A stretch of 64,000 bases of DNA from positions 49,730,583 to 49,794,582 of the forward strand of contig CM070874.1 in NCBI GenBank assembly GCA_036365515.1, read 5' to 3'. The notes under the pieces are model-generated. The model saw only the letters and a list, made by a program, of their open reading frames with translations, had not been told where the DNA came from and did no database searches. Position numbers and translations under genes: made by a program. The DNA is from Torymus aiolomorphi. Its lineage: Eukaryota > Arthropoda > Insecta > Hymenoptera > Torymidae. Shown here one piece after another: positions 1 through 64,000 of the stretch; positions within the stretch are counted from its first letter, which is position 1, and every line of letters starts with the position of its first letter.

Positions 1-472
1 TATTCCCACCCATTTTTAACTGGATATTTAAGTGGATTCCCACCTAGATATAACAGGATTCCTATGCATTATTAACTGGATTTCCATTGAATAGAAAAGC
101 GAAAGTTAGATGGATTCCCATCTATATTAAACTGGATTTTTACATGGATTTCCGCCGTCACGCTGGGATTCCCATTTATTATTAAGTAGAATTTTGAGTG
201 GATCCCATTTAATAGAAATGCGAAAGTTAGGTGGATTCCCACCAACATTTAACTGGATTTTTACATGGATTTCCGCCTTCGCCCAGGAATTCCCATTTAT
301 TATAAGTGGATTTCCATTTAATCCAGATAAAAATGGGTGGGAATATTTGATATCATCAACTGGGAATCCGACTGGAAATCCACCAAAATCCAGCTGGAAT
401 CCACTCTTCCCCAGCTGGATTTCCCTCTTGGAAAATCCAGTTGGATTTCCCAACTGGATATTTTTGACCGGG
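1..472. mobile_element. Foldback element F (GGATTTCC/CCAGCTGG array), left end cut by window
   Basis: The stretch is built from irregular copies of a motif like TGGATTCCCACC / CTGGATTTCC in both orientations. Bases 1-18 are the reverse complement of about 330-346, so the centre of symmetry is near 173 and roughly 126 bases of the left arm lie outside the window. The right end reads ATTTTTGACCGGG at 460-472, which read inward is CCCGGTCAAAAAT: the same plan (CCC, variable bases, A-run) as the other foldbacks here. No real coding sequence; ORFs here are by-products of the repeat. Confidence 0.7.
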
Positions 473-1089
473 TATACTTGGAGAAAGCAGGTGTTAGGAC
501 TGTTAGGTTACATATTCTAATAACATAAGAAAATTGAGTTTCTATATAAAATTAAAAGATTTCTCTCAAACCAAATAATAAAAAATATTAAATTTTTTAA
601 AGGAAACATTAGCAAGTGGCAATTTTTAATTTTTTAAAAATATTGTTTGTTACTTATTAAAATAATTAAATGATTTGGCTTCTCCTCACTTTCTTTAGTT
701 TTTCCTTTTGTGGTTTTCGAATTTTTTGACGCCATTGCACTTTTTAAAATCTATAATCAGTCCACACTCGAGTAAAAAGCTCTGCACTGGGAAAGTAAGA
801 AGTAAGAACACGTATCTTCCTGTCTTTGTTCAACACCATGTGTTAAAGAAAGATAGACAGAGACATGTTTCCAATTATAAACTCGGGGTGGCGCTGTATT
901 ACCGTAAAGAGATGCTGGGATTGGCCGATGTGCCAGCGGCGTGAAACGCATACATACATCCAGACGTCCTCCGACTTTCAAAATATAGGTATAAACAGTA
1001 GGAAGGGCGGGACTACAGGAGTTAGGATTTTGGGAAGCGATAGCGCGGCGCGTGCTCCCGTGTTGACAAAGTGCGCGCGTCATAAAACA
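473..1089. other. AT-rich non-coding stretch
   Basis: I see no gene, long inverted repeat or recognisable transposon end. Base composition shifts from AT-rich to GC-richer after about 1000. Confidence 0.4.
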
Positions 1090-1335
1090 TTGGCGCAACG
1101 GCGCGGAGGTTCGGCGCGCGCTCTGCTATATATATAGGTATACCTTATAAACGGGAGAGTGCGCGCGCCGTTGCGCTTGAGCGTGGATTGAAGAGAGCAA
1201 GAGTTTTCCTTAAAATCGCCAAAAAGAGCAAGAGCTTGTTTAAAATCGCCTAAAAATCGCCAACGCCAAACCATAAAAATCAGTCGCCATTGGTATCTGG
1301 AAATCGCCAATTTGGCGACAAATCGCCAAATCTGG
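1090..1335. repeat. GC-rich inverted repeat and AAATCGCC motif cluster
   Basis: A GGCGCAACGGCGCG-type sequence near 1091 is answered by CGCGCCGTTGCGC near 1168 with a TATA-rich loop between. It is followed at about 1212-1335 by many irregularly spaced AAATCGCC motifs, some inverted (GGCGA). Origin unknown; possibly the arm of a degraded foldback element. Confidence 0.4.
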
Positions 1336-1435
1336 CAATCCTGGCATGTGACGCCTCGGCCACGTGGGGTCTGGTGTAGAACGTAGAAGAAAGTGCGACG
1401 TCACGCTGCGCATACTCTTTTCGGAGAAAGCTTTA

Positions 1436-1684
1436 GAGCGAATCCACATTGCGCGCTGTGCGTCGTGTGCCGTGCGATTTGTGTCGTATCAAAAAGAAAG
1501 TCTTGTTCGACATCTATGTAATTGTTATCTATGTTTGACATCTATGTTCATCTGTTCAATAGGAAAATAGGTCCTTCCTCTTTATCCTGTGGTAATAAGT
1601 ATGTAGATGTTGAACAACACTTTCTTTTTGGTACAGCACAAATCGCACGGCACACGACGCACAGCACGCAATGTAGATTCGCTC
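1436..1684. mobile_element. Palindromic MITE with TTA target duplication
   Basis: The left arm (GAGCGAATCCACATTGC onward) is repeated inverted at the right end with about 50 bases of near-perfect pairing. TTA flanks both ends (1433-1435 and 1685-1687), the 3-bp duplication usual for PIF/Harbinger elements. No transposase. It shares the block GAATCCACATTGC with the palindrome at 13159-13327, although the sequence inside differs. Confidence 0.65.
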
Positions 1685-1993: not shown

Positions 1994-3019
1994 AAAGGAG
2001 TGTCCATAAGGGCTGTTTCTTGCCCACCTGTAAAAAAGTAACCATTTTTTTCGAAATTAAGGTTTTATTCGATAAATTGATTAATATAAAGATGAACAGA
2101 CCGGGTTTCGTGTGTCGGCCCAACTTGGTTTGGGTCCCAGGCGAAAATGATCTTCTATAATAAAAGTTTAAAAAAGTTTATAACTGATATTGGCAGATTA
2201 TAAAGTCAGGATTTGAGACTTTTTATAAAAGTTTAAAACTGTTATAAATAGTTATAAATAGTTATTTACTTTCATAAGTTTTTTGGATCGTCGTACAAAT
2301 TTCAATATTTGATCAGTAAAAAAAAGTAAATAACTATATTAATAACTATTATAAATTTTTAATAATTGAAAATAATGATTTTAAAGTTCAAATTAATAAT
2401 GATTTAATATAATAATGATTTAAGAATGATTTTAAAGTTTAAATTCATTCAAAACAATTTATAACTATTAATAACTATTATTATTAAGTAAAAAAAGTAT
2501 ATAATTGATAATAACTTTTAACAGATTGATTTTATGGTTATGCACCGCAGCCCAAAAAAGTAAATAAAAGTTTATAGCTGTTATAAACTTTTTTTAGCTA
2601 TTCATAACAGAAAAAAACTGTTGATAACTTTTATAAACTGTTACTATAGTCTCAAATCCTGCCTTTATAAACAGTTATTAACAGTTATAAACTTTTTTTT
2701 TAAATTATAAAAAATTATATTTTGTTATTAATAATTATTTGCTAAGTTTTATTTCCGCCTGGGGTATTATAGGAGATGAGGGTTTTACGAAAACCGTATT
2801 CTTCTTAATAATTTTTCGTCGTAAAAGTTAAAATTAGAACTCTGAAATCAAAACTTTCTGGGTCTCCCAAACCCAAACCAAGTTGGGCCCACACACCAAA
2901 CCGGGTCCGTGCGTCTCCAAATTGATTATTTTACCAAAGAAAATCGTAATATAGAAAAAAATGGTTACATTTTTTTTTATAGGTGATCCAAAACAAGCCC
3001 TTAGGGACACTTCACCTTT
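1994..3019. mobile_element. Inverted-repeat element interrupted by foldback J
   Basis: About 140 bases at the left (AAAGGAGTGTCCATAAGGGC onward, up to the TTGGTTTGGGT block near 2135) reappear inverted at about 2850-3019 with moderate divergence. The middle is occupied by foldback J, so J appears to have inserted into an older palindromic element. No coding capacity. Confidence 0.55.
2136..2763. mobile_element. Foldback element J (TTATAA / GTTATAAC array)
   Basis: The ends are CCCAGGCGAAAAT and its near-inverse ATTTCCGCCTGGG. The interior is a dense array of AACTGTTATAAAC, AGTTATTAATAACT and related palindromic units. GT precedes the left end and follows the right end, a candidate 2-bp duplication. 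It fits the CCC-(N)5-AAAA plan of elements A-D and F-H. Confidence 0.6.
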
Positions 3020-3542: not shown

Positions 3543-4521
3543 CCCACATAGCACGTTACGTTTTTGAAACGTTTTTGAAACGTTTCTTTAGGAACCTACA
3601 AACGTTGCCCTAAAAGTATAGAAACGTAACAGAAATGTTTCAGAAACGTAGAAATGTCCCAAATCTGAAAAAATTTTTATAAAAATCGTAAACGTGTTTA
3701 AATCGTCTCAGAAACGTTTCTGAATCAGAACTCAAACGTTTGTACAAAGTTTTGGAAACGTCTCTGAAACGTATACATAATCGATTCGATAAAAAGCTTA
3801 CTGGACAATTATTCACGTTCCAGATTCGTCTCAAAAATGTTTCCAAAACTAATTGGAAACGTTTCAGAAAAGATTCTGAAACGTTTCTAAAACATAGCAC
3901 GAAACGTTTGAGAAACGTTTCTACAACGAAATTAAAATAATCTACATTGTCAGTTATTAACACTGATATTACTTCAAACAGTATTCGGTACGCTTTGCTA
4001 GAGTAGACGTTCCTTATGTATCCTGGAAATATCTTTTCTTTTATGGACTGAACTACGCCATCTATCGGCGGGTCGGATATCGAATACTTTACAATCTTAA
4101 TGTTTTGTATATAGTGAACCATATACAAAACATTTTTCGTCTTAGAAACGTTTGTGAACAAACGTTTCTAAGACGTTCTTACAACGTAACCTTGCACTTC
4201 TGAAACGGCAAAGAAACGTTTCCGGCTCAATCAGAAACGTCGCTGAGACGAATCTGGAACGTGAATAATTGTTCAGTAAGTTCTTTGTCGAATCGATTAT
4301 TTACGTTTCAGAGACGTTTCCAAAACTTTGTACAAACGTTTGAGTTCTGCTTCAGAAACGTTTCTGAGACGATTTAAACACGTTTACGATTTTCATAAAA
4401 ATTTTTTCAGATTTAGGACATTTCTACGTTTCTGTTACGTTTCTACATTTTTAGGAAAACGTTTGTAGGTTCCTAAAGAAACGTTTCAAAAACGTTTCAA
4501 AAACGTAACGTGCTATGTGGG
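3543..4521. mobile_element. Foldback element E (AAACGTTT array)
   Basis: A 979-bp near-perfect foldback: CCCACATAGCACGTTACG at the left is answered by CGTAACGTGCTATGTGGG at the right, and the arms pair over several hundred bases. Each arm is packed with the palindrome GAAACGTTTC and variants. CC flanks both sides, although C-runs make the exact ends ambiguous. The 173-codon reverse-strand reading frame across it is repetitive and not a gene. Confidence 0.75.
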
Positions 4522-9576: not shown

Positions 9577-11025
9577 GCTTCTTCAAAGAGGAAGCTTTGT
9601 AATGGTGAAAAAAATTTTGGAAACAAAAAATATTCAAAAATAGGTTTTAAGACTTTCGGCGCTAAAATCCGTTGTTTTTGATAAACAAATTTTCGTGTGT
9701 GCGCGCGTGCGTGCGTGTGTGTGTGCGTGAGTGAGTGCGCGCGCGCGTAGCAGGCGATAACTTTTGAACCGAGCAACCGATTTACATCGGACAAAGCTTA
9801 TTCTCTTCGTTTGGGAAGAGAATAGAGAGAGAGAGAGCATAACCTACTTCTTGATTTTATAAGTTTCTTTTTTAATAACCAACAAACGATTTTGAATTTT
9901 TCGTTTTTTTGATTTTTAATTCGTTACAGACAGTATTACTTAATATAATAAATTTTTCTTAAAAGGTCGTTAAATTACCTACAATTTCTTTTTTTAATAT
10001 TTAAATTACAAGCGACATTCAAACGCGCTTCGCGCGTACTTGTCTGGTTTTGCGGTTATGTGTGCTATCTTCATTATGTTTTACTTTTAACTTATTTAAG
10101 TATTTTTTCAAAGTCAGAACTTAATCATTTTTATACTACACTAAATGTAAAAATTCCATTTAAAAAATTCAAACATTAAATTCCAAATAGTAAATTTCTC
10201 GCGCCTTCTTATCGACCAATCAAAATCAAGCCTTTAGATGCTTCAACATGGCCGCTCATCATTTTTTTAAGAAAGGAGAATCTTTAGCCTGTCATTTGTT
10301 ACTAATGAAAATATGGTTTATAATTCTTTAATTAATATCTCAAAAACGTTTTCATTTATCCACTCAAAATTTTTACCAATTATTACACTTCTCGAGTACA
10401 ACATTGTGTTAAAATTTGAAGAGGTTATGTTGGTTTGTTTCCGAGAAAGAAATTATTTTTGAAAACAAGTGCGTTTTCTTTCATTTATGATAACAGGAGT
10501 AAAAGTCAATGAATCGTTTTGAAATTTGGCAGAAAGTAGCATTTTTATATCTAAGGATCGAGTTCTTTACCCAAAAATATCTGACTGTTGTCTGTTGTCA
10601 AGATATTTGAGGTTAAAATTTTTGTTATAAATTTCTTATATTTGCATTTTTAAAAAGAATATTCGATTGATGACTCAAAATTTTGACAACTTATTACACT
10701 TATCGGGTACAACATTATGTTGAAATTTCAAGAGATTTTTCGATTTTTTTCTCGAGAAAGAAATTATTTTCGATAACTAATGTATTTTTTTAAATTTTTG
10801 ATAACAATAATTAATTGTTTGTATAGGATACATAAATGAAAAAACAAAAAGGATATTTTTTGTATTAAGTCAAATTGTTTAATAAACAACAAAGAATAAC
10901 AAAGAAAGCAGCTTTATTTATTAATAAAGTTTTGTTGTGAAAAATTTACTTTTGTTTTTTAAATTTTAAAAAATGGAATCGATAAAGTAGTTTGGGGAAG
11001 CATCTTGCCAATGAATTGGCAGCGG
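9577..11025 (+). mobile_element. Repeat family X, copy X2
   Basis: Starts with the hairpin GCTTCTTCAAAGAGGAAGC and ends with the GCCAATGAATTGGC hairpin plus GCGG before a T-run. It carries a GTGCGTGC microsatellite near 9700 and repeated TTTGAGGTTAAAA blocks. It is the best complete reference for X6, with which it is collinear. Non-coding. Confidence 0.65.
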
Positions 11026-11379
11026 TTTTTTTCAAGGCGAGGTTCAAAAATAGGTTTGAAGTAGGAGCATTTTCTAAAAGTACTTTTTAAAAATGTAAAT
11101 ATAAAAAATTTATAAAAAATTTTTAACCTCAAATATCTTTGGTCAAAACTTCTCTGCCAAATTTCAAAACAATTTGGTAGTGGGGGGCAGTCAGATCGTC
11201 CTTTGCTAACAAAGTTTTTTCCAGGTTTTAATTAAGTTTTTATTTCAGATTCTGCGGGGGTGATTATAAACAAGGGCAATCTGACTGCCATAAATATTAA
11301 TTATTTTAATTTAATTTGCAAGACTGTAAGGCCGATGGAAAAATTCTTATCAGTTGATAGTAAATTGCAGTCGACATAA

Positions 11380-11650
11380 GTAATATTTTTAATAATTCAA
11401 AACAATTCATTGACTTTTACTCCTGTTAACGTAAACGAAAGAAAACACACTTGTTTTCAAAAATAATTTTTTTCTCAAAAAAAGAATCAAGAAATCTCTT
11501 GAAATTTTAACACAATGTTATGCTCGATAAGTGTAATAAGTGGTAAAAATTTTGAGTCAATCAATCGAATATTCTTTTTAAAAATGAAAATATAAGAAAT
11601 GTATACAAAAATTTTAACGTTAAATATCTTTGGTCATTTACACCATATTT
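11380..11650 (-). mobile_element. Fragment of family X
   Basis: Reverse-complement copy of the X2 segment around 10400-10690, recognisable by TCATTGACTTTTACTCCTG and the block with CACAATGTTATGCTCGATAAG. No ends present. Confidence 0.55.
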
Positions 11651-12538: not shown

Positions 12539-12576
<38 letters not shown>

Positions 12577-29704: not shown

Positions 29705-29714
29705 GTATGTATAT

Positions 29715-30464: not shown

Positions 30465-33136
30465 CCCTATTGAAAAAAATCATGTAACAAAATTACGTGA
30501 TTTTGTTACGTAACAACATCACGTAATATTTTGGTCCAATATGATACGTGATTTTACAAAAATTACGTAACATATGATAATTGCTTTATTCGAAAATCAC
30601 GTGAAGTTTGCGTAATTACGTGATTTTTACTTAATGAAAAAAATTTTATAGACATTAAAAATCACGTAATTTTCTTCCTCATAGAGAAAGCTTTGTAATA
30701 GTAAAATTTTAATTTTCTTTAAATTGCTCTAGAAACATGAATAAAGGTGTTAGAAGTTTGTGTCACATGATTTTAGAAAATGTCTGTATGGATGTGTGTG
30801 TGTGTGTGTGTGTGTATACCGCTTTATTTTCGGATCTACGCGGTCGATTTTAACCGGACGGGTCTGATTTTTTTTTGTTTTTTGATTCCGAATTCGGGAA
30901 AAAAATAATTTTGTACGACTAATTGATTCGTTTTTGTTTTATGTCGAATTTTTCATTTTCGAAAAATTTATTTTTTATTTTTTTTAATGATTGGATTTAA
31001 ATTTTATAATCGGATGGGTAGCGTTCGAAAGAGCATAAAAAAACCTATATTTAAAAAAAAAAAAGTTTCTAGCTATCACGGTTCTTTGGTTATTAACAAA
31101 AACGTAAAACATGAAAAATGAAAAAAATGAGTTTTGTATGTCCAACGATTTCGGAGGGAAAATTGTCGTAATTTCTTCAAAATTCCTTGTGGAGGTAGAT
31201 TTTGGATAGCTCTTGGTCGAGTTCTTTGGGCAAAATAATTGGTCCATAAATTTCAGAGATATTTGAGGTTAAAATTTTTTAAACTTTTTTTTAAATTGTA
31301 ATTTCTCGAGAACGGTTCTACGAATCAGCTACAGATTTCTAGACAATTTTGTATATGATATAGATATGTATGTGAATTTTCATGAAGATCGACCGATTAT
31401 TTTTTGATATTCAAAATTTTCCTATTTTACAAAGTTATTTTATTTGTCGCCTGATAACTAGAGAAAACTTGTTTTAATTTTTTTTTAATTTGGCGGAGAT
31501 GTAGAGTGTATATTATTTATTATATGCGTTTTTAGAGTAAAAGAATTCGTTTATGAATTTCAGAGATATTCGAGGTTAAAACTGATTTAGCCTTCTTTTC
31601 AATTCGTAATTTTTTGGATATATCTATACTAGAAAATGGAAATAACACGTGCTATGCGTGCGTGTTGTTCACTTGCTTTTGTTTTTTATTGAGGGTAATT
31701 TACAGCGCGATCAAGTTTTAACCTTATTAGACTCATTGAAGAATATATTTGGTTGAAATTTCAAAAGATTATCTTTATTTTTTACTCAAAATATCGAAAT
31801 TTTTTGTATAGAACATTGATTGGGAAAAAGTTTGCATTTTACTTGCAGAATATGCCAGTATTTTTGTTGTAACGTTTTTGGAAAGTCTCTTGACTGACTT
31901 GATTGGTGACTTTATAATAAACATTCATATGTGTAATAAACGAATATATATGTAATACAGAGTTTGGTAATTTGTTCGAATTTATTTTTAAGTTGTAAGT
32001 GTAGAGACAAGTCAATAAAATATTATACACGTTATTTGAAAAAAAAAAATTTAATTAATGAGCATTTTGTTGATGATAATATAATAATAGGGTAACCCTA
32101 CTGAAAAAAATCATATGATTTATCATATGATAAATCATGAGATGTTTTCGAGAAAATCATCTTATAATTTGTCATATGATAAATCATATGACAAATCATA
32201 TGATAAATCATGTGATAAATCACATGACAAATATCATGTCCCATCAAACAATAAATCTAATAATTTAAATTATTTCTATTATATGTTTTAAAATAAATCC
32301 TTAAAACAAAATTAATTTATTTAACGCAGATATGGCGAAAAATTTTCAGTCCCCATTGTAAAGGGGCTATCAAAAACAAGGCAAGCCTTGTAATTCTCTT
32401 CGTAGAGTCATTTGAACAAAGAAAGAAGAAAGTAGGGATGGTGGGGGTCCCCTCCGTCGCCCCCTACCAGTGAGGTACAGCCTGCCTGGATCACCGTCCA
32501 GGAGCCCCTTACGTAGAAATGAATCCACGTAGGAGGAGCCTGGGCGATTCCAGTTACCTCTCCTTAAAGAAGGAAATCAAGAAGAGGAAGTTGTGCGTTA
32601 CCCTGTGAGGGCATTTCCACACTATCAGAAGTTATAGAGCAAAAACGGTTGTATGGCTGGACTACTATTTGGAGTGTAGAATGGGGAAAAACCTCGCTAG
32701 GAGTAAAAACCCATTTATCTTAAGTTAGTTGTTGAGACGCGCAGAAAGACTTTATTAGACAGAAAAAATAGATGAGTAATTTATATAGGTAGGTAAAGGT
32801 GATATGCGGCAGAAAGTTTTAGAGGAAAGAGATTCACCCAGAGGGAGACGCCGCATCCGCCAGCCGGTCCGGTCAGGCATTCGTTGCGGTTTTGAGGCGC
32901 ACTGAATATCAGCCGCCAGCATAACGTCGCTGCGTCTCTTTCTGCGTGAAAGGAGAGAGAGAGAGAGAGAGTTTAGTGTATGAGATGCGTCTTCTTGATG
33001 TGATCCTGAAAGAAAAATGATTAGTAAGGGGAAGGTAAATCTGGTGTGTCTGCATTTGTCCTTGGCTTGGATCTGTTGTATCTGAAACATCGTAAATTTG
33101 CGTTATTTACTAGGATTTATGTGGGTGGATCTATAT

Positions 33137-33953
33137 CCCTACTGAAAAAAACCATATGGGATCCCACGTGGAATCCCACACGAGATCCCACGTGTGAATT
33201 TGATATGGGATCCCATGTGGCATCCCACGTTTAAACTCGAAGCATGAATTCCCACATGAGATCCCACAAGAGATCCCACATGGGATCTCATGTGGGATAT
33301 CATGCGTTTAACTTGAGTACGGGATCTCATGCAGATATGGCGTAAAACTTTGAGTCCCCCATTGTAAGTAACGGAGTTATCAAAAACAAGGCAAGCCTTG
33401 TAATTAGGACGCTTCACAAAGAGTCATTTGAACGGTTGACTTACACGCCTTATATACTCTTGGCCGTCCAACTTATCCACAGATAGCACTACCGAAGCAC
33501 CGCATAGCGGATAAATAGCCGAAGCTTACTTATGGAGAGCCGTCCATCACAAGTTCTGCTTTGTCACCGCAATGCGGCGTTCCGATAGCGCTTTCTGTGA
33601 ATACACTGGATGGCCGAGAGTATATAAGCCGTGTAAGTCAGCCGTTCAAATAACTCTTTACGAAGAGTCCTAATTACAAGGCTTGCCTTATTTTTGATAT
33701 TCCCGTTACTCACAATGGGGGACCCAAAGTTTTACGCCATATCTGCATGAGATCCCGTACTCAAGTTAAACGCATCATATCCCACATGAGATCCTATGTG
33801 GGATCTCTTGTGGGATCTCATGTGGGAATTCATGCTTCGAGTTCAAACGTGGGATGCCACATGGGATCCCATATCAAATTCACACGTGGGATCTCGTGTG
33901 GGATTCCACGTGGGATCCTATGTGGGATCCCATGTGTTTTTTTTTCAGTAGGG
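33137..33953. mobile_element. Foldback element B (GGGATCCCACGTG array), inserted in the LINE
   Basis: 817 bp, ends CCCTACTGAAAAAAACC and its inverse. Arms are arrays of CCCACATGAGATCCC / GGGATCCCACGTG units. The core is homologous to that of A (GCAGATATGGCG, CAAGGCAAGCCTTGTAATTAGG, a palindrome with TATATAAGCCGTG). TAT lies on both sides. The youngest layer of the nest. The terminal HMGSHIGSHVESHTRSHV-type residues appended to the LINE RT frame come from this array. Confidence 0.82.
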
Positions 33954-35652
33954 TATGCAAAAAGTCTTTAGGTCTCTTGTATTTGTCTCTTGCGTCGGAG
34001 TCGTAGTTGCCTAGGTTTTTAATGATTTGATATTTTGATTCCGAAATTCTGTTGTAGAAGTTTTTGCCGGCTTCTTTGATGTAATCTTTAATGTACTCTA
34101 CATTTAAATCTTTATGAATTAGAGTATTTTTAGTGTATCTAGGGGCGTTTAAAATAGTGCGGAGTGTTTTATTCTGTACCGTTTGTATTTTTTGGTAATT
34201 AGATTTGTTTGTGTTAGCCCAGATCGTCGAGGCGTAGGTTAAGATGGGTCTTATTATCATTTTGTAAATTATTACTCCGTTATTTATATTTAGTGCTGAG
34301 TGATTATTTAAGATCGGTTTGAGTTTCATTGTGGCTCCTATTGCTTTGTTACGCGTGTTATTAACGTGGGCTGTGTAACTTAATTTTTTATCAAGCATTA
34401 CTCCTAGATATTTTACTTTATTTTCCCATTCTATAGACTCGTTGTTTAGATTAGGCGGATCTAGATCCCGTGTTGGGTTTTTTTTACGCGAGAAAAGGAT
34501 TGATTCTGATTTAGAAGCATTTATTTTTATGCGCCATAATATTGTCCAGTTTTTTACTTTATTAAGGAATTCGTTTAATAGTTTTACTATTTTGAGATTG
34601 CTCCACGAGGTAGCCCACGCGGCCGTGTCATCTGCGTAAATTCCTATTTTTACTCCTTCAACGGTTGGAAGGTCATTGATGTAAATGATGAAAAGTATAG
34701 GACCGAGTAGACTGCCTTGTGGTATGCCTGCACGTATATTAAATTCTTTAGATACTACGTCATTTAGTTTTACTTTAAATTTTCTATTTTTTAAATATGA
34801 TGCTAGTAGGTGAATTAAATTTTTATTTATTTTGGCTTCGATCAGCTTGTGGATTAGTCCGTTAATCCACACGCTGTCAAAAGCCTTCGCGACGTCCAGA
34901 AAAACCGCGCCTGTGTTTCTGTTGCAGTTAAAGCTTTTCGTGATGTCTTCTGTTAGTCTAAGTATGGCCTGTACTGTCGAGTGTCCATCTCTAAAGCCAA
35001 ATTGTTCTGCTCGGAGTCGAAGTTTATCGTTTAGTTCGTCTTTAAGTCTGTCGATTATGATTGATTCGAAAATTTTGCTCATTGTATTTAGTAAACTTAT
35101 GGGCCTGTAGCTGGTGGTCATGGTTAGATCTTTACCGGGTTTAGCAAACACTAAGATAGTTGCTTTTTTCCACTCCGTAGGGAAATAATTTAAATCGAAG
35201 CAAGCATTAAGAATTTTCGTAATATAACTTATGGCGCTGGAGGGTAGATGTTTAAGCATGCAATTAGTGACTTTATCCGGTCCGGGGGCTTTATTGTTTT
35301 TAGTTCTTTTAATATAGTTTTTGATTTCGAATGGTTTGGCTTTATATTTAGGATCCGTAATTTCCAGATGGTTTAAGTACGAGGAAACCATGCGGTCTGT
35401 TTCTGTGGTGAAGAGCTTTGCTTCTTCGGATTCGTTTTTATGCGGGGTAAATGTATTAGCGAAGTGCGTTCCAAATGCGTTAGCTTTGTCTTCTGGAGAA
35501 AAATATTTAATTTCATTATTTTCGTTTTTAAGAGCTGGAATATTTGTTTGTTTACGCGTTAGACCTTTTGTCATTCTCCAGAGGCTGTTATCTTTAATAT
35601 TTAATTTTTTAACTGTGTTATTCCACGTGTTACATTTAAATTCTTTAATCAT
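33954..35652 (-). pseudogene. LINE ORF2, reverse transcriptase part
   Basis: About 565 codons of non-LTR RT. Visible blocks: KAPGPDKVTNCMLKHLP, YRPISLLNTMSKIFE, EQFGFRDGHSTVQAI, VFLDVAKAFDSVW, AGIPQGSLLGPILF and the catalytic YADD in IGIYADDTAAW (near 34640). It copies the LINE RNA at a nicked target. The frame differs from the endonuclease part by one indel near 35700, and its last few codons are displaced by foldback B, whose removal would leave a stop a few codons later. Not functional as it stands. Confidence 0.9.
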
Positions 35653-36650
35653 TTTATCGATTTTTTCCGTTGGTGATTTATTTCTAGTTTTAGTAGGGGA
35701 TTTGGCCTGACATGGTTCTCTCGTATGTTTTTATTTCTGGAGTTAATTAAATCAAGTATTGTTTGTGCCAGAGGGGGTTCACCGGTTTTATTTTCATTTT
35801 TAGGTACTGCTATTTCTAATGCTTCCGAGATTGACTTAGTTAAATTTAAGATTGCAAGATTTATATTATCGATTGAATTTAAGTCGTTTTGGCGCTCTTT
35901 AATCGCGTTATCTATATGATTTTGAAATGAATTCCAATTTGCTTTTGCTAAGTTATATTTAGGATGGTTAGTGGTGAATTTAGCGCTCAAGTTAACTATG
36001 ATTTCTATGGGGTAGTGATCTGAGTCTAACTCGTGAATTGTGTTTACATCCGAAGTAAAATAGAGATTTTTTGAGATCATGAAATCTATTATGTCCGGTT
36101 TTAGTCTTTTGTTAAATGGATAGTGCGTGAATTCCGGAGGTGCATGAACTGAAAGGTTATTTTTAAAACAGAAATTATTAATGGTTTTGCCAAGTGTGTT
36201 AATAGATCTACTACCCCATATGGTGTGTTTTGCATTGTAATCTCCTGCTGCAATAACAACCGGGGCTATTTTAAAGATTTTAGTGTAGTCGGCTTTATGG
36301 AATTTTACGCTAGGGGAGTTATATGTGGATATTATCACGACTTCTTGGCCTCGCGTTTTAATTTTTATAGCCGTGGCTTCTAGTTTTTCGAGATCAATCG
36401 GAATTACGTAGTGGCTGATGTTATTTTTAACGAGAATAGCCGTGCCTCTGTTAGTGTTGTTTTTATATGTTTTATAATTTTTTATGTTGAAATTTTGTTT
36501 ATCTTTAATTAAGGTTTCACTTATGAGGCAAATGTCTATTTTGTTATTTATTAAGAGGGATTCTAATTCAAGTCTTTTGACATATAATCCACCACACGCG
36601 TTCCATGCGTAGATTTTTAATTGTTTATTTTCCTGCTCCATTGCTGACAT
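35649..36650 (-). pseudogene. LINE ORF2, apurinic-type endonuclease part
   Basis: Starts at ATG 36650, overlapping the end of ORF1 by 26 bases, the usual dense ORF1/ORF2 arrangement. Endonuclease/exonuclease/phosphatase fold motifs: WNACGG near the start, ICLISETLI with the metal-binding glutamate, VIAAGDYNAKHTIWGS and SDHYPIEI. It nicks target DNA to prime insertion. Ends at 35649 because a frameshift near 35700 separates it from RT. Confidence 0.88.
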
Positions 36651-38055
36651 TAAGGGCTGTAGAGAAAAGTTGTTTTATTAGATTAGCTGTTTGAATTGTT
36701 GCATCTTTAAGTGTGAGTGTACCTGTTGTAATTTGAAGTGTTAACTCGATTGCCTCGTTTATAATGTTCATTAGGTTTTCGGCGTCTTTAGATTGTATTT
36801 TATCATTATTATTTATCATGTTTGTTTGTGTGTGTGTCCAAGCTGGACTTGCGTTTTGTTTATTAATAAGTCGCGGGAAGTTACGTTCATAGTTAGTGTT
36901 GGCGTTGTAATTATGTTGTTGTGTTTGTTGTTGTTTTTGTGGCGGTTGTTGTCTGGGCGCATGAATTTTTACCTGTTGTGTAGGTTTAGCGTTTGTTTGT
37001 TTTTGTGACCTGATTTTGATTAGGTCGTGTTGTCTTTTATATCTTGGGCATCCCTGGTAGTTTGCCGTGTGGTTTCCTCCACAGTTAGCGCATTTTAGGT
37101 TGTTTGTTTTATCCGAGAAATCTAATTTGCATTCAGTTGATTTGTGGATTTCTCCACATTTAACGCATTTGGGAAGCATGTGGCAGAATTTAGATACGTG
37201 ATTAAATTCCTGGCAGTTGAAGCATTGCACAGGTTTGTTAGGTTTGTTGTACTTTTCAAGTTTTATTTTAAAATAATTAATCGATTTTACTTCGTTCAAA
37301 AGCTTTAGGTTTTCATCATTAGTTATGGTTAATAAGAAAAGAGGGAGCGGCGTGGCTGTTCTTCCACTTCCTCTTTTCATCTGTGCAACGCCCTCAATCT
37401 TCAGTCCTAATTCAATCAATTCTTTCTTGATTTCATCCGTTTCTGTGTACGAGGGGAGGCCTCTTATCACAATTTTCGCAGGGGGGGTGGAATCAGCAGG
37501 TCGTCTCAGGGAGAATTGAAAATTTGCTTCCTCAATACCCTTGAGTAACAACCGATAGTCGTCAAGTGTACTAACCCCAACTAACATGTGGGTGCTGTCA
37601 ATAGTTTGAACCATCGGTGGAAACTTAAGTTTCCTGAGAATAACTTTAAGCATCTTGTAGGGGAAGTTTAATTCGTCCACTTTGACTGTCACTGGTTTGA
37701 TGTTTTGTTTTTTAGGTTTAGGGTCTGTCACGTTGTTTGTCTGTGTGTCGTTTGTATTTAGGCACCCGGTTGGTACCGTTTTTTCTGTATTGTCATTGGC
37801 AAGCGCCTCAAAGTAATTTTTAGTTTTATTAGAAAGGGTTACGTTAGATGGTTGTGTGTTGATCTTACTAGTGCTGGTTTTGGTGCTGCTGCTGGCCCTT
37901 GTTGAGGTCCTGGCCTTTGTCGAGGTCCTGGCCTTCTTCCTCTTGGTCGATGATACGACGCTGAATCCATCATCACTATTATCGGGGTTCACTCGCTTAG
38001 GGTGGTGTGGCGTTGAACCATCCGACTGGTCCATTTTGTCCGATGTGCATGACAT
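36625..38055 (-). CDS. LINE ORF1, Gag-like nucleic-acid-binding protein
   Basis: About 476 codons from ATG 38055 (the frame extends a little upstream only with a GTG). N-terminal part is Ser/Thr/Lys-rich; the middle carries the PRE_C2HC-type region of Jockey/R1 Gag proteins, followed by three zinc knuckles: CFNCQEFNHVSKFC, CVKCGEIHKSTEC and CANCGGNHTANYQGC (about 37070-37235). A Gln/Asn-rich stretch and a short helical C-terminus follow. It binds element RNA. The frame is uninterrupted, unlike ORF2. Confidence 0.88.
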   Translation of the reverse strand: MSCTSDKMDQSDGSTPHHPKRVNPDNSDDGFSVVSSTKRKKARTSTKARTSTRASSSTKTSTSKINTQPSNVTLSNKTKNYFEALANDNTEKTVPTGCLNTNDTQTNNVTDPKPKKQNIKPVTVKVDELNFPYKMLKVILRKLKFPPMVQTIDSTHMLVGVSTLDDYRLLLKGIEEANFQFSLRRPADSTPPAKIVIRGLPSYTETDEIKKELIELGLKIEGVAQMKRGSGRTATPLPLFLLTITNDENLKLLNEVKSINYFKIKLEKYNKPNKPVQCFNCQEFNHVSKFCHMLPKCVKCGEIHKSTECKLDFSDKTNNLKCANCGGNHTANYQGCPRYKRQHDLIKIRSQKQTNAKPTQQVKIHAPRQQPPQKQQQTQQHNYNANTNYERNFPRLINKQNASPAWTHTQTNMINNNDKIQSKDAENLMNIINEAIELTLQITTGTLTLKDATIQTANLIKQLFSTALNVSNGAGK

Positions 38056-39870
38056 GGTGACCTTGGAGGTCACCTCTCCTAGGTCCGCTCTCTGGTGGCT
38101 GCTGTTGTTGTCGAACTTGTAGTTTGGAAGGATGCGGTGAATAACACAATACTGTGTTCAGCCGTGTGATTGCCCTTAGAAGGGCAGGTGATCAAATTGA
38201 TTCTCTGATGCACTATCACAATCACTATCACTCACTAATGAAAACTATCGCGATACTCATCCGCTTCCTGTGCGGAGCGAAAAGGAATCCCATCTCCATC
38301 GTCATTTGAACAGTTGACTTACATGGCTTATATACTCTCGGCCATCCAGTGTATCTACAGAAAGCACTACCGGAGCGCTGCATAGCGGTGACAAAGGGGA
38401 ACTTGTGATAGGCGGCGATCGATCAGCAAGCTTCGGCTATTTATCCGCTATGTGGCGCTCCAGTAGTGCTTTCTGTGGATATACTGGATGTCCAAGAGTA
38501 TATAAGCCGTGTCAGTCTACCGTTCAAATGACTCTTTACGAGGAGTCCGAATTACAAGGCTTGCCTTGTTTTTGATAGCCCCTTTACAATGGGGACTGAA
38601 CATTTTTCGCCATATCTGCGTTAAATAAATTAATTTTGTTTTAAGGATTTATTTTAAAACATATAATAGAAATAATTTAAATTATTAGATTTATTATTTG
38701 ATGGGACATGTTATTTGTCATGTGATTTATCACATGATTTATCATATAATTTGTCATATTATGATGTTTCATATGATAAATCACATGATTTATTATATGA
38801 AAAATTATAAGATGATTTTCTCGAAAACATCTCATGATTAATCATATGACAAATCATATGATAAATCATATGATAAATCATATGATTTTTTTCAGTAGGG
38901 AAACGCAACCGTTGTCGGCCACTTGTTTAATATGTTACAGATATTATTACTTAACATCATAAATTTTTATTAAAAGGTATTTAAATTATGTACATTTTAT
39001 TTTTTTAATATTTAAATTATCTTCACTCTGTCATTTATTATTAACGAAAATGTGCTCAAAATTATTTAATAAATTTTTCAAATAATAATTGATTTATCGA
39101 CTTCAAGTTTTAACCACTTATTATACTCATTGAAGAATATATTTGGTTGAAATTTCAAAATATTATCTTTATTTGTTTTTTAAAAAAACAATGTTTTATA
39201 AAAAAGTAGGAGTTTTGTTGTCACGCGATAACAATATTAAGAAAATCAACCAATAGTCCTAAAATTTGGGAGAGATATATTTTTTATATCTTCAAACTGA
39301 ATTCGTTGCCCAATAAAATCGAACTATTACGACGAAAGATATTTGAGGTTTAAAATAAAACTAATTGAACATGTGATAATATTTTGAAAAAATTGATTTA
39401 TAAAAATATCGGGTTGTCGCACGAGAAAAAGAGTAACAAGAATGAATTTTCGAAAAATATATATTAATTTATTACGAATATTCATAAAGAAAATTGGGTA
39501 TGGTACAATTAATTATTGTTATAAAAAATAAAAAAAAAATGAATAAATACATTATTTTGAGGAAGCTAAGTGCCAATGTATTGGCATCGGTTTTACATAT
39601 TGATCATGGGCTACTAAATTTTAATATTCAAGGTTTTTTTATGATACAAGTGTTTTCGTATACAATATAAAATAATTATGTACAGCAAAATCTGGTATTC
39701 CATATTCTATATTCTTATTTTAAAGTTTTATATGCATATGCGATTATGCACTCGTTTTGGCGACACGAATTCTGCAGTATAACCACATTGTATTGGCTGG
39801 ATGACAAGGAGTACGTCAAGTCTCAGCTCCAAATATCAAATCCAGGATCCTGGTATCCAGTTCAATCACA

Positions 39871-40461
39871 CCCTACCAAAAAAAAATCAGCTGATAAATC
39901 AGATGATTTGTCTGATTGATTTATCAGCTGATTTCTCATCTCAAAAAGTCACCTGAGATTCTGCCCGGATGCTGCCAAAAGCTTACGTAAATAAAATATC
40001 AGCTTATTCAGTATTGGAAATTGCCTATTAGGATGTTTTACCCCCCCAGATGAGTTAAAAAATGCACGTTTGGAATCCTTTTGCAAATTTTTTCTATTTC
40101 TAAAAATTTTGTACATGAGATATCAGCTGAGAAATCAGCTGAAAAATCAGGTGATTTCTCGGTGAGATCTCAGGTGATTTTTCATCTGATTTGTCAGCTG
40201 ATTTCTCAGCTGATATCTCATGTACAAAATTTGTAAAATTTGAAAAAATATGCAAAATGCTTCCAAACGTGCATTTTTGAACTCATCTGGGAGGTAAAAC
40301 ATCCTGATAGTCAATTTCGAATACTGAATAAGCGATATTTTATTTACGTAATCTTTTGGCAGCATCCAGGCAGAATCTCAGGTGACTTTTTGAGATGAGA
40401 AATCAGCTGATAAATCATCTGACAAATCATCTGATTTATCGGCTGATTTTTTTTGGTAGGG
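39871..40461. mobile_element. Foldback element C (CAGCTG array)
   Basis: 591 bp, ends CCCTACCAAAAAAAAATC and its inverse, flanked by CA on both sides. Arms are ATCAGCTGATAAATC / TGATTTCTCAGCTGA units. The spacer AGATTCTGCC...GATGCTGCC and ACATCC...TCATCTGGG blocks are mirrored in both arms. Sits in the core of D. Confidence 0.82.
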
Positions 40462-41416: not shown

Positions 41417-42230
41417 CCCGAGTAGAAATGAAATACGGCGTGCCGTAGGTATCACACGGGCCGGATGGCGTATGCCGTGCAAGGCCCTCGCGCGGCATGT
41501 AATGCTTTTATTGTAAGGTACTTGCGTTTCTGCCGTATGATAAACTCATTTACAGCAAGGCTTATCCGGGCCGGTACAACGCCGTGAAATTTTCCGGATA
41601 AGGTACATGCCATTTTTCCGTTATATTAGCATTAGTATTTGAGCATTTGTTTACGCGCGCGTCATAGCCTCAAATCTGAATAGTGCTCCGTTTGTTTCTG
41701 TCGTACGAAGAACAACCTAATAAGTATAATGGATAAACAATGAAGGAAAAAGTTAACTACTAAATTTCGAAAAAAGAGGATATTTTAATAAAAATAAGTA
41801 GTGTTTAATTAAATAAAGTACAAATAGATGTAGAATTATAATTTTTCGAAAAAGTGCAATTATTAATTTTATATTTGTTATAAAAAAAACAAGATTATAA
41901 TGTAGTGTCCAAATATATAAAATACATTAAATATGATTTAATAAATACACCAAAAATATATTAAATGTTGTAATTTTTATTAAGTATAGAACATATTCGC
42001 TTTCAAATTATTTAGACAATAAGCCACGTGTTGCCCGAATCAGGGCCGGATCAGGGCCAGATGTTTCACCGGACGTAAGGATATAGAAAGGTAAAATCAT
42101 CCGGCCCTCATACAGTTCAGCGTTACATGCCTTGTACGGCACTCATCCGTCAACAACATCAGGTACGGATCAGGAATCACGGCAGACGGATCCGTCCCGC
42201 GTCATTGCCGTTTGAAAATTTCTACTCGGG
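41417..42230. mobile_element. Foldback-like element H (CCGG/GCCGT repeats)
   Basis: 814 bp, ends CCCGAGTAGAAAT and ATTTCTACTCGGG, flanked by AG on both sides. GC-rich subterminal parts repeat GGGCCGGAT, TACGGC and GCCGT units in both orientations; the centre is AT-rich. Same CCC-(N)6-AAA terminal plan and 2-bp flank as A, C, D and J, but weaker palindromicity. Confidence 0.65.
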
Positions 42231-44654: not shown

Positions 44655-44694
<40 letters not shown>

Positions 44695-46007: not shown

Positions 46008-46637
46008 TTTTTTTTTTTTATATAAAAAACCCCAACACAAATTCTTAATCCGTGTATTTATTCAAATAAAAAACACTACAAAATAAAGTTATATTTTCTT
46101 TTACTAAATATAGAATACCAGATTTTGCTGTACATAATTATTTTATATTGTATACGAAAACACTTGTATCATAAAGAAAACCTTGAATATTAAAATTTAG
46201 TAGCCCACGAGCAATATGTCAAAAAATTACTCGATTTTGCCGATAATTACGTGACTTTGTAAAAATTACGTGATTTGTAAAACATTACGTCATTTTGTCA
46301 AAAAATTACGTGATTTTTAATGTCTAAAATTTTTTACATTCGGAATAAATCACGTAATTACGCAAACGTCACGTGATTTTCGAATAAAACAATTTTGCCA
46401 ATAATTACGTGATTTTGTCAAAAAATTACGTGATTTTTAATATCTAAAATTTTTTACATTCAGTAAAAATCACGTAATTACGCAAACATCACGTGATTTT
46501 CGAATAAAACCATTAACATATATTACGTAATTTTTGGAAAATCATGTATTATATTGGATCAATATATTACGTGATTAATTACTGTATTTTGTCACGTAGC
46601 AAAATCACGTTTTGTTACGTGATTTTTTTCAATAGGG

Positions 46638-53034: not shown

Positions 53035-53754
53035 CTCACCCCTTCTATGTGTTTTTTTTAAACCTCGAAACAGGTCAACTATAATTTTTAATTTGCTTTA
53101 CAACATGGCATTTTTTAATCAAATATGGCTCGTCAGAACTTTATTATTTTAAAAACAGCGTGAAAAAAATTATATTTACCCCCATAAAAATAGGGGGTGC
53201 AACCCCTTATCATTAAAACTGTGTCAAAATACTCGTCTTTTTATAAGAAACAAATAGGTGTTGGTTTCATTAAAAAATTCCGATTCCATCTCGAGATATT
53301 AAAAAAAACTGTTTTTGAGGGTGAACTTTAAGGGTGGTTTTCACCCCCAGATGTCCTTCTCCACAGATAAAAAAAAAATACGTGTCAAATATTTTTCGAT
53401 ACTCTAACCAGTTGCAAAGTTTCATGAAAATCGGAGGCAGACACTAACAAAAAGGTGATTAATTAAATTAGGGGTAATTCACCCCGTCAACGTGTTTTTA
53501 TTTTTAAATCTCGAAACAGGTCAACTATAATTTTCAATTTTCTTTATAGCATGGCAATTTTCAATCAAATTTAGCTCATTAAAACATTTTTATATCAAAA
53601 ATACAAGGGAAAATATCATATTTACCCTTATAAAAAGTAGGGGATGCAATCCCCAGCATTAAAACTGTGCAGAAAAATTCGACTTTTCATAAGAAACAAA
53701 TAGGTGTTGGTTCATTAAAAAATTCCGATTCCATCTTGAGATATTAAAAAAAAA

Positions 53755-56830
<3,076 letters not shown>

Positions 56831-60987: not shown

Positions 60988-62214
60988 AGAATTCTTTTCA
61001 GAATTCAAATTCAGAATTCAATTCAAAAAGAATCCTAAAAGTCCTAAGAAATCATGTCTTTAATCGGTTGACTGCATACATAGACTCATTAGGAATCATT
61101 AAAGTAGGAGGTCGGCTTCACAAAACTCAACTGGATTATCACTCAAAATACCCAGCAATACTACCATGGAATACTATCATTAGGAATTCTCACTCATCAA
61201 CATTCCACGGTGGCGCTCAACTCACACTCGCACACACACGGCAGGAATTTTGGATAATCGGAGGTAGGGCACCGGTCAAGTCACTCATTTTAAAGTGTGT
61301 GACTTGTGCAAGGTATCGGGCTCAACGGGCTCAGCAACTCGTGGGGCAACTACCTATGGCCAGGGTCACCCCATCCTCACCTTTCATTCATACTGGGATC
61401 GACTACGCCGGGCTAATCAATATAAACTCATAGAAAGGTCGTAGATTCAAAATTTATAAATATTGGATTTGTATCTTTGTGTGCTTCTCAACCTCAGCTG
61501 TTTATCTCGAATTGGTCAGTGACTACTCAACAGATGGATTTCTAGCGGCTTATAGACGGTTTACCTCGAGGAGAGGAAGCTGACCCTCTCACCTCTACTC
61601 AGACTGCGGAACAAATTTTATTGTAGCAGATAAGGAGCTGAAGACCCTCTTCAGACAAGTTCACCAGGAAAACTCAAGCATGTATGTACAACTCAATTGT
61701 GAATGATGGCACTCAATGGATATTCAACCCACTTGCTGCACCTCACATGGGAGGCAAGTGGGAAGCCGTTGTGAAATCAATAAAATTTCATCTACGTAGG
61801 ACCATTGGGGATACTCATCTCACCTTTGAGGCTTCAGCTACACTACTCACTCAAATTGAAGGATTACTCAACTCAAGGCCGCTAGAACCACTCAGTGAAG
61901 ATCCAGAATATATCAACGCACACACTCCAGGATTCTTCCTCATCGGCAAGGCACTTAACTCAGTGCCTGAACCAAATCTACTCAACCTTAACGAGTTAAG
62001 GCTTTCTAGATGGAAACTCATTCAACGTATGACTCAACAGTTCTGGCAACAGTGGTCAAGCCAATACCTTCATCGGTTACAATCCATTTCTAAGTGGCAT
62101 CATCCATCACATGAGATTCAAGTCGGTTCATTGGTTTTACTCAAGACATCAACGACTCAACTTACACGGCCAATCACCAAACTCGCTATCTTACCAGTAC
62201 CAAGTGGACTTTAA
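60981..62214 (+). pseudogene. BEL/Pao pol: integrase, broken
   Basis: 60981-61433 has the zinc-binding His-His-Cys-Cys region (KCVTCARYRAQ near 61300) and the first catalytic aspartate in GIDYAG. 61434-61683 is degraded by stops and frameshifts. 61684-62214 holds GGKWEAVVKSIK with the DDE glutamate, LNSRPLEPLSEDP and the C-terminal VGSLVLLK. The enzyme would integrate the DNA copy. Confidence 0.83.
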
Positions 62215-62242
62215 TCAACCTGGCGGTTGATAGCGGGCGGAA

Positions 62243-63732
62243 TGTTTGGGAATTATATGCTTTTTAAATCTCGCGCGGTAGCACTCTCGGCGGTTTCACT
62301 CACGGCGCTGCCACGGCGCGGCAGCACCTCGTGGTGTCTCTGTAGGACAGTCTAAACGGTGTTTTGATTAGGTTAGTCAGTGAAATAGTCTCTCTGTCTC
62401 TCTCGCTCCCCCATACATTAATGGAAGAGATAAAGATTTGACTCGCACTGCGAGTGACAGTACAAGCCGAGAAGAAGGAAGTTGGCCCCGACGCTCACTC
62501 TCTCTGCTTTTTGGCCACCCTCGAGGCACATCACACTCAACCGAAAGGCACACCTTTTTTGATTGGAATACTCAAAACATTCACTGGCTCAACTCAGTAG
62601 GGGAGGGCGGGGCACGTGTGACACCCTAACTTTGATTAAAAATAACAACTAAACCGTGTATTATTTCAAAATGTACGAAAACGGAATAATTAGATCAGAA
62701 AAAAATAAAATAAAATAAACTATTAACTTTTTCTTCATTTTCTTTTAATTATTGATAAAATACAGAAAAGAAATTCTGAAAAAAATGCTCTACGTGCCCC
62801 ACCGGCGGGTGGATTGTGGCACCCGACAGGGCATGCATGGCACGATCAAATTTAATATTTTACTATAGGTATTTTTCAATTCTTTTTTCCAATAATCAAT
62901 TCTTTAATAATTATGCCATAATAAAAATTTCAAAAATCAAATAATTAATCAGTCTATTGAAAATTTAAAATTTTATTTTTATTAAGGAACATAACAATTT
63001 TTATTTTAAAATACCATTGTTTTTTCTACTCTAAATATAACTTAATACGCAGTCGAAATAATCGTTATTTACTTATTAATGTAATAATTGAAACTAAAAA
63101 CTAGTTAAAACTAAATTATTGCACTGCGTAGTTGTTAACCCATCTTGCTCCGTTTTTGGTTTGTAGGTTACATCACTTCGCTCGGCGGCCGCCGCGGCGC
63201 ACTGATACGCCCGAGTGTGCCACGCGTGCCCCATTTTAATACCATTTTCATTTTTTAATTATATTATTTATAAAGATTTTCTGAAAATAACAAAAACAGG
63301 GCTTGAAAGATAAAAGTTGAAACTATCAAATAGGTTTGGTCTCATTTAGAAAAAAATAATTTTCTCGTTGCTCCAAGCGACTTAAAAATGAAGTTAACCT
63401 TGTTTCTAAGCACCGATTTTCAATCTTATTAAATTAAATGTTAAACATTATCTATAATCTCAAAAGTATAGTGGAAAATTCTAAAAGCATATCTAATTAG
63501 GTTTACGTAAAAATTACATTTTTTGCATTCATTAATATTAAAAATATGAGGGTGCCAATCTTAACTACCTGACACGTTATGCCTCGCCCTCCCCTAATAT
63601 AACTGGATTCTCTCCTGCTTGGATATCTGCACATCACCATCAGCAGCATTCACGGTTGGAGCAGTACACTTGATCTTCTCTACAGGCAGTGCACGTGCAC
63701 AGATAACCTCTCACTCTTACGGCTATTCCATA
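62243..63732 (+). repeat. Probable 3' LTR of the BEL/Pao element, interrupted
   Basis: Starts TGTTTGGG directly after a purine-rich tract. 62243-62600 and 63595-63732 flank the TA-MITE. Without a second LTR the end cannot be set. Confidence 0.5.
62601..63594. mobile_element. TA-flanked MITE in the BEL/Pao LTR
   Basis: GGGGAGGGCGGGGCACGTG at the left and the near-inverse CGCCCTCCCC at the right, with TA on both sides (62599-62600, 63595-63596). Repeated GTGCCCC and GGCACCC motifs near both ends; AT-rich centre. About 994 bp, non-coding. Confidence 0.7.
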
Positions 63733-64000
63733 CCCTGCTAAAAACGTAGATTGAAAAGAATTGGAATCGATTAAAATTCAATCGATTTTGAGACTAATTC
63801 TTGATACCAATTTTCAGAATTCAATTCGATTACTTTCGATAGAAATTTACAGAAATCTATTAAATACGATTCAATTTTAAATTTCAGTGATTTGGTTTGA
63901 CCGGTTTGAATCAATTTTAATCGAAAGCAATCGAATTGAATTTTGAAAATTGGTATCAAGAATTAGTCTCAAAATCAATTAAATTTTAATCGATTCCAAT
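63733..64000. mobile_element. Foldback element G (AATCGATT array), cut by window end
   Basis: Begins CCCTGCTAAAAACG. Bases 63760-63778 are the reverse complement of the last 19 bases of the window, so about 27 bases of its right end are missing. Units: AATCGATT, CAATTCGATT, AATTGGTATCAAGAATTAG. Confidence 0.75.

What the first reader, a model, noticed from the sequence alone, without database searches (positions are those of the whole stretch)
1..64000. One transposon plan with many different palindrome arrays
Seen: elements A (32096-38900), B (33137-33953), C (39871-40461), D (30465-46637), F (ends 472), G (starts 63733), H (41417-42230) and J (2136-2763) all end CCC + 4-6 variable bases + A-run. 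Just inside lies an array of a short palindrome repeated in both arms, and the palindrome differs: CATATG, GGGATCCC/CACGTG, CAGCTG, TACGTA/CACGTG, GGATTTCC, ATCGAT, TTATAA. E (AAACGTTT) has the same build with a different end. Inference: one transposition system in which the subterminal array, probably the protein-binding part, is replaced or homogenised into a new palindrome per subfamily. The nearest known design is the subterminal motif arrays of CACTA/EnSpm elements.
Basis: partly seen in the sequence, partly recalled or inferred. Interest (0 to 1): 0.9.

Follow-up and report, generated by a model that had tools for sequence, protein, structure and literature searches.

The report
Animal CACTA transposons with interchangeable palindrome arrays
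These are jumping genes of the CACTA kind that keep almost the same outer ends while the block of short repeated palindromes just inside changes from family to family, giving a natural series for asking how a transposon's recognition sites evolve.

Summary
A, B, C, D, E, F, H and J are bounded by inverted CCC ends; seven have an exact 2-bp target duplication, B a 3-bp one. E, filed as an exception, also starts CCC. Arrays are strong in A, B, E, short but clear in C, weaker in F, J, D, G, absent in H. Genome-wide, the A/B end occurs 642 times against 6 for the reversed control. Twenty sampled arms with that identical 15-bp end fall, by eye, into seven classes; three of these are abundant and strongly periodic. 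A and B share end and core (84%) but hardly any array; C shares its core with two elements whose arrays differ. The system is CACTA/EnSpm, animal "TRC" branch: a 15-kb element with CCCTGTTGAAAATATCC ends, AA duplication and arrays in both arms contains a Transposase_21 match, and two Transposase_21 families stop exactly at near-identical CCC ends with different arrays. Variable subterminal repeats are known from plant CACTAs. What appears new is their variety on constant ends and cores in one animal genome, and a shared framework: CA-NN-TG is 6.7 times background over 19 arms and frequent in 10. No transposase was found for the window's exact ends, and what binds the arrays is unknown.

The parts
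32096..38900 (.). Element A: CCCTACTGAAAAAAA ends, CATATG array (unit ATCATATGATNN), TSD AA; interrupted by a LINE
33137..33953 (.). Element B: same 15-bp end as A, arrays of GGGATCCC/CACATG/CACGTG (12-bp period), TAT on both sides (3 bp); same core as A; sits in the LINE inside A
33331..33746 (.). B core, from GCAGATATGGCG inward in each arm, shared with A (84% over 331 bp)
39871..40461 (.). Element C: CCCTACCAAAAAAAA end, CAGCTG arrays at ends and centre, TSD CA; core shared with an element at G000:C2 49801610-49801932 (CAGGTG array) and with L031
30465..46637 (.). Element D: CCCTATTGAAAAAAA end, TACGTA/CACGTG arms without clear period, TSD GA; contains A, C and H
3543..4521 (.). Element E: CCCACATAGCACG end, AAACGTTT array of period 11, TSD CC (ambiguous)
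1..472 (.). Element F, right part (whole element 599 bp, left end outside the window): CCCGGTCAAAAAT end, CCAGCTGG motifs, TSD TA
63733..64000 (.). Element G, left part: CCCTGCTAAAAACG end, ATCGAT motifs, partner end not found
41417..42230 (.). Element H: CCCGAGTAGAAAT ends, TSD AG, no array
2136..2763 (.). Element J: CCCAGGCGAAAAT / CCCAGGCGGAAAT ends, TTATAA motifs of period 10, TSD GT
32419..38300 (-). LINE inserted in A (RVT_1, PRE_C2HC frames), 12-bp duplication GTCATTTGAACA on both sides; carries B

Best explanation
The window's CCC-ended elements are non-autonomous members of the CACTA/EnSpm superfamily (animal TRC branch). A transposase of the Transposase_21 type acts at the CCC ends and leaves 2-bp (sometimes 3-bp) target duplications [shown: ends, duplications, and Transposase_21 elements with such ends; inferred: catalysis, and that the window's families use this type]. 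The subterminal arrays are tandem dimer sites, often CA-NN-TG in a unit of about 12 bp, read by an element-encoded DNA-binding protein or transposase domain [inferred from the TnpA precedent]. Ends stay constant while the array on a given core changes, in both arms together, when a subfamily shifts to a new recognition site, either by converting the array or by exchanging whole arms between families [shown: one 15-bp end with several array types, one core with two or more array types; inferred: how].
For: Ends and TSDs in the window. 642 v 6 and 1218 v 0 genome-wide. First 8 and first 10 pairs under 1 kb of the two listings: 15 of 18 have an exact 2-bp TSD, 2 of the other 3 have 3 bp, 1 none (1 of 16 expected by chance for 2 bp). 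150 Transposase_21 matches (150 of 344 candidates scored). L045 and L046 (96-98% alike; frames of 722 aa, and of 115 + 677 aa; PF02992 at 2.4e-10 and 1.8e-10) lose homology exactly at CCCTGTTGAAAATATCC beside an array of ATCCACGTGGAT-like repeats. Of the pairs under 30 kb among the 100 listed places of that end, two enclose Transposase_21 matches: C1:49909174-49924223 (15,050 bp, TSD AA, arrays in both arms) and C1:49546027-49563836 (17,810 bp). L049/L052 (99.7% alike) stop at CCCTGTTGAAAAAAATCAGG with another array; the transposases are 48% identical over 363 aa. A/B core 84% with arrays that align at or slightly above shuffled level. C core with two other elements, 86% and 83%. CANNTG 6.7 times background, the highest of 16 spaced half-site palindromes. 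CCC ends, 2-bp TSD and Transposase_21 mark animal TRC elements in PMC1636069 (passages); PMC4298943 uses CCC and 2-bp TSD (passages).
Against: No Transposase_21 element with a window element's exact end was found: none of the matches falls in a CCCTACTGAAAAAAA pair under 30 kb among the 100 places listed of 642. L023 and L024, two long CCCTACTG elements, hold nested mariner/Tc1-like elements instead. H has no array, nor by eye do CCCTGGTGGAAAT and CCCTAGAGGTACT elements of the sample. Seven of 19 arms (E, G, H, J, the TCGCGCGA family, two sampled families) have no CANNTG. The A left arm aligns with B's arrays slightly above the shuffled range. L049's array has few palindromes and best period 18. 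No array-binding protein was identified.
Confidence: 0.8

Rival explanations
1. Arm exchange, not array replacement: cores were shuffled between otherwise stable families, so B is the A core carrying the arms (end plus array) of another CACTA family that happens to share the 15-bp end.
For: The CATATG array occurs beside at least two other interiors (L033, L040) besides A/L037, and the A/B core with two arrays. One 15-bp end is common to several array types, so a swapped arm would look like a swapped array.
Against: Both arms of A and of B are matched within each element, which needs two exchanges or one followed by copying. L040 is an unpaired end and L033 was read for 281 bp only, so their interiors are uncertain.
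Confidence: 0.4
2. The arrays are by-products of replication slippage in the arms and are not bound by anything; their variety is neutral turnover.
For: Palindrome counts alone are mostly not significant against shuffles; tandem repeats expand readily.
Against: Best period 12 in 18 of 20 sampled arms, 15 of them at a strength reached by at most 5.4% of random windows; arrays in both arms and in transposase-bearing copies; shared CANNTG framework.
Confidence: 0.15
3. The arrays are E-box arrays that recruit host bHLH factors (for expression or for bridging the ends) rather than an element-encoded protein.
For: CANNTG with varied central dinucleotides (CACGTG, CAGCTG, CATATG, CAGGTG, CACATG) in 12 of 19 arms, frequent in 10; that CANNTG is the bHLH site is recalled.
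Against: Several families have other palindromes (AACGTT, TCGCGCGA, TTATAA, ATCGAT); the precedent in En/Spm is an element-encoded protein (PMC2613891, passages).
Confidence: 0.15
4. Some listed elements (H, G, J, E) belong to other superfamilies with convergent CCC ends.
For: H has no array and dissimilar arms; E lacks the RAAAW step.
Against: H and J have exact non-TA 2-bp duplications, as do 9 of the 15 sampled short elements with 2-bp duplications.
Confidence: 0.25

Closest known systems
TRC elements (animal CACTA/EnSpm: SmTRC1 of Schistosoma, elements of Tribolium and Aedes; Spongebob of Hydra and insects)
   Same: CCC termini and 2-bp target duplications; Transposase_21 in the first three; Tribolium end CCCTAGTAGCACCG is like the ends here (PMC1636069 and PMC4298943, passages)
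   Different: No family of short-palindrome arrays on constant ends is described in the passages I saw; SmTRC1 has a region of tandem repeats and an internal repeat in its TIR
Plant CACTA elements (En/Spm, Tgmt* and Tgm1 of soybean, Jozin of Chenopodium)
   Same: Ends such as CACTAGTAGAAA (close to several ends here); subterminal arrays of 10-20 bp units, 12 bp in Jozin, that differ between families or species and are thought to be bound by TnpA-like proteins (PMC2613891, PMC8978399, passages)
   Different: CACTA start and 3-bp duplications; units are not described as CA-NN-TG palindromes in the passages seen; two subfamilies per genome are discussed
Foldback elements such as Tetris and Galileo of Drosophila (listing and start of abstract only; rest recalled)
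   Same: Long inverted repeats with internal tandem repeats (recalled)
   Different: P-like superfamily and longer target duplications (recalled)

Membership tests
CACTA/EnSpm (TRC branch) | Transposase_21 (tnp2) transposase inside the element | tested here: inconclusive
   Met for two genome families with ends CCCTGTTGAAAAT and CCCTGTTGAAAAA; no transposase found for the window's own, non-coding families
CACTA/EnSpm (TRC branch) | Terminal inverted repeats beginning CCC (animals) in place of CAC | tested here: met
CACTA/EnSpm (TRC branch) | 2-bp target duplication | tested here: met
   7 of 8 complete window elements, E's ambiguous; 15 of 18 sampled short pairs, 2 more with 3 bp
CACTA/EnSpm | Subterminal arrays of 10-20 bp units in direct and inverted orientation | tested here: met
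   A, B, C, E, J; weak for D, F, G; not met for H
CACTA/EnSpm | TnpA-like protein binding the array | not testable with these tools
   no candidate seen among the frames of at least 100 aa in L047+L046, about 13.4 kb of the 17.8-kb element
Tc1/mariner (considered because TA is the commonest duplication) | Strict TA duplication and a mariner transposase | tested here: not met
   9 of the 15 two-base duplications are not TA; the mariner/Tc1-like frames in L023/L024 are nested with their own ends
piggyBac (considered because of CCC ends) | TTAA duplication | tested here: not met

The most novel reading that the evidence does not exclude
The arrays are a modular recognition code. A dimeric DNA-binding domain reads CA-NN-TG sites set about every 12 bp, and CACTA subfamilies in one genome separate from each other by changing the central letters (AT, GC, CG, GG/CC, CA) while the cleavage ends stay the same; non-autonomous elements change allegiance by swapping the array on an unchanged core.
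Probability: 0.3. Interest if true: 0.78.

Novelty: new variant of a known kind. Interest (0 to 1): 0.58.

Why it matters
Soybean work suggested that subterminal motifs and the proteins that bind them diverge together (PMC2613891, passages), with two subfamilies. Here one genome offers several array types on one identical 15-bp end, several arrays on one core, and long open Transposase_21 frames of at least two subfamilies, so the question of how a transposase family changes its recognition site, and how non-autonomous copies switch helpers, becomes directly testable. The CA-NN-TG framework gives a specific prediction about the binding protein.

Tried and rejected
Viral contig scans for the A/C end with array and for the E end: 0 hits. 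A first genome pattern with wrong spacing (CATATG every 10 bp) found only simple repeats, 2+2 against 8+8 in the control. A scan of all 64 terminal triplets for 2-bp duplications was not a clean test: CCC had 27 of 78 pairs with matching flanks, second of 64 to CGC (18 of 46), but 11 of the 27 are pairs inside B's arrays, and long inverted repeats inflate other triplets; its predecessor wrongly dropped TA duplications. Rfam (gathering scores) and tRNA scans of the window: nothing. Long CCCTACTG elements L023 and L024 were tested as autonomous copies and rejected. A 6.7-kb CCCTGCCTCAAAAA element on C5 holds LINE-like frames (by eye). In the sample, CCCTGGTGGAAAT (C3, two copies that look like one inverted duplication, since their flanks are reverse complements) and CCCTAGAGGTACT (C3) have no array by eye: counterexamples to 'every CCC element has an array'. 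Genome-wide counts of the grammar CCCN5RAAAAA-N-TCANNTGA and of CCCTACTGAAAAAAANCANNTG could not be obtained: the tool was busy each time.
Full report
What is there. The window lies on contig C2 of an unnamed 1.08-Gb genome in 21 contigs; LINE, integrase/Pao and mariner-type frames and a cwf21-domain frame suggest an animal, probably an insect (inference). Eight of the nine named elements could be bounded on both sides, each by inverted ends that start CCC: A CCCTACTGAAAAAAA, B the same, C CCCTACCAAAAAAAA, D CCCTATTGAAAAAAA, E CCCACATAGCACG, F CCCGGTCAAAAAT, H CCCGAGTAGAAAT, J CCCAGGCGAAAAT; G has CCCTGCTAAAAACG at its one visible end. The flanks are AA, (TAT), CA, GA, CC, TA, AG, GT in that order. 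Simulated windows gave 0-2 such cases each among 7-12 chance pairs; the window read backwards gave 10 among 52, against 23 among 67 for the window, many of these inside B's arrays.

Nesting. A is cut by a LINE with the 12-bp duplication GTCATTTGAACA. B lies in that LINE, and the reverse transcriptase frame reads into B's array. A, C and H lie in D. Hence D came before A, A before the LINE, the LINE before B.

Arrays. Autocorrelation shows 12-bp periods in A, B and, in short blocks, C; 11 in E; 10 in J. F has CCAGCTGG twice in one arm. D and G are weak and H has none. I fetched 20 arms with the identical end CCCTACTGAAAAAAA (20 of the plus-strand places among the first 100 listed of 642). In 18 of 20 the best period is 12, in 15 of them at a strength that at most 5.4% of 2000 random 160-bp windows of the sample reach. 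Counts of 8-bp palindromes alone are mostly not significant against shuffles.

Same end, different arrays. By eye and alignment the 20 arms fall into seven classes: B type (9), TCGCGCGA (4), TCATATGA (3), and one arm each of CAGGTG/CACCTG (L044), CAGCTG with C's core (L031), D type (L032) and L036, which has CAGCTG and CACGTG motifs but no clear array. The first three classes carry the strong 12-bp period (15 of their 16 arms); the four single arms are weakly or not periodic. L032 has the A/B end although D itself has CCCTATTG.

Same core, different arrays. From GCAGATATGGCG inward A and B are alike (84% over 331 bp). Between the 15-bp end and that point their arrays score, against 200 shuffles each: A right arm with B arms -26.0 and -21.0 (shuffled maxima -17.5 and -16.5), A left arm with B arms -3.0 and -4.5 (maxima -11.0 and -5.5); so two comparisons are at chance and two slightly above, while the two arms within A score 175 and within B 161 (maxima 39.5 and 8.0). 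L037 repeats the A combination; L023, L027, L028, L030, L035, L038, L039, L041, L042 and L043 repeat the B combination. C's core recurs in an element 7.3 kb right of G's start (end CCCTACTGAAAAAT, array CAGGTG/CACCTG, duplication TA) at 86% over 87 bp, and in L031 at 83% over 113 bp. Conversely the CATATG array lies beside interiors unlike A's in L033 and L040; L040 is an unpaired end and L033 was read for only 281 bp, so these two are weaker evidence.

Which transposon. PMC1636069 (passages, one from the abstract) describes animal CACTA elements, 'TRC', with CCC ends, 2-bp duplications and Transposase_21; PMC4298943 (passages) assigns elements to TRC by CCC and 2-bp duplications. The genome has 150 Transposase_21 matches among the 150 of 344 candidates that were scored. 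Two loci 96-98% alike, L045 (frame of 722 aa) and L046 (115 + 677 aa in two frames), match PF02992 and lose their similarity exactly at CCCTGTTGAAAATATCC, next to about 950 bp of ATCCACGTGGAT-like repeats. That 17-bp end occurs 1218 times against 0 for the reversed control; of 40 neighbouring pairs among its 100 listed places, 33 are 700-830 bp long. Two listed pairs enclose Transposase_21 matches: C1:49909174-49924223, 15,050 bp, with the array in both arms and AA on both sides; and C1:49546027-49563836, 17,810 bp, which is L046's element, with AA on both sides, though an inverted end 339 bp inside its left end makes this less certain. A second pair of loci, L049 and L052 (99.7% alike), stops exactly at CCCTGTTGAAAAAAATCAGG beside another array with CATGTG, CATATG and CAGGTG motifs. 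The two transposases are 48% identical over 363 aa. So nearly identical ends carry different arrays in transposase-bearing elements too.

Target duplications in the genome. Of 18 short pairs (the first 8 and first 10 under 1 kb in the two listings), 15 have exact 2-bp duplications (TA 6, TT 2, and GT, CG, AG, CT, AA, GA, TC once each), two have 3 bp, one has none. B's 3 bp fit this.

A rule across arrays. In 19 arms (one arm each; related families are not independent), CA-NN-TG occurs 3.61 times per 160 bp against 0.54 in 3000 random windows, 6.7-fold, the highest of the 16 possible spaced half-site palindromes; the next, GA-NN-TC, is 3.7-fold. Ten of 19 arms reach a density of three per 160 bp, two more have one or two, and seven have none: E, G, H, J, the TCGCGCGA family, and two sampled families (C1 26546 and C1 44400). 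The arms were not chosen blind to their arrays.

How it probably works. By the En/Spm precedent (TnpD with the tnp2 domain, and TnpA, which recognises the subterminal repeats; PMC2613891, passages), the Transposase_21 protein acts at the CCC ends and a second DNA-binding function acts on the arrays. Palindromic, evenly spaced sites suggest a dimer per unit. Since both arms of an element match while arrays differ between elements with one core, both arms change together, by conversion between arms or by acquiring whole arms. All of this paragraph is inference.

Novelty. The idea that diverging subterminal motifs go with diverging binding proteins has been proposed for plants, and 12-bp subterminal units that differ between species are described (PMC2613891, PMC8978399, passages). 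My literature searches showed, in titles and abstract starts, no report of exchangeable palindromic arrays on constant ends in animals; this library lacks most subscription journals and the Repbase entries, so prior description there is possible.

Noticed in passing
window 48816-53840: Long inverted repeats (83-96% alike) around a frame that looks pogo/Tigger-like by eye (49885-50947, minus strand; no Pfam match); no CCC ends noticed.
   Followed up: partly
window 1999-3011: J sits near the centre of a larger inverted repeat (78% over 141 bp) with CCCAACTTGGTT on both sides, as if inserted into the loop of another fold-back element.
   Followed up: no
window 28741-29820 and 10308-11630: Further long inverted-repeat elements; CCC ends not seen in them.
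   Followed up: no
window 27543-28556: cwf21-domain protein frame (PF08312, 1.5e-16) with repeated SSESDSDKLKKKKK units, a likely splicing-factor gene among the transposons.
   Followed up: no
L024:1530-2822: A 1293-bp mariner (Transposase_1, HTH_48) with ends CGAGGGTCATTTGAYAAG and TA on both sides, nested in a CCCTACTG element.
   Followed up: yes
L023:382-3686: Element with inverted repeats of about 1.2 kb and a weak DDE_3 match, inserted in the core of a B copy with a 2-bp overlap, apparently TA.
   Followed up: partly
L045:6534-7128, L046:7469-8063: A 595-bp palindrome (92% alike) starting CCCACGTAAAAATTG inside the Transposase_21 element.
   Followed up: no
L025, L026, L034: The TCGCGCGA arms run into sequence that resembles 5S rRNA DNA by eye (GGCCGATCACTGAGGCTAAGCAGCA...); an Rfam scan of the three pieces gave no match at gathering scores, so this stays a guess.
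   Followed up: partly
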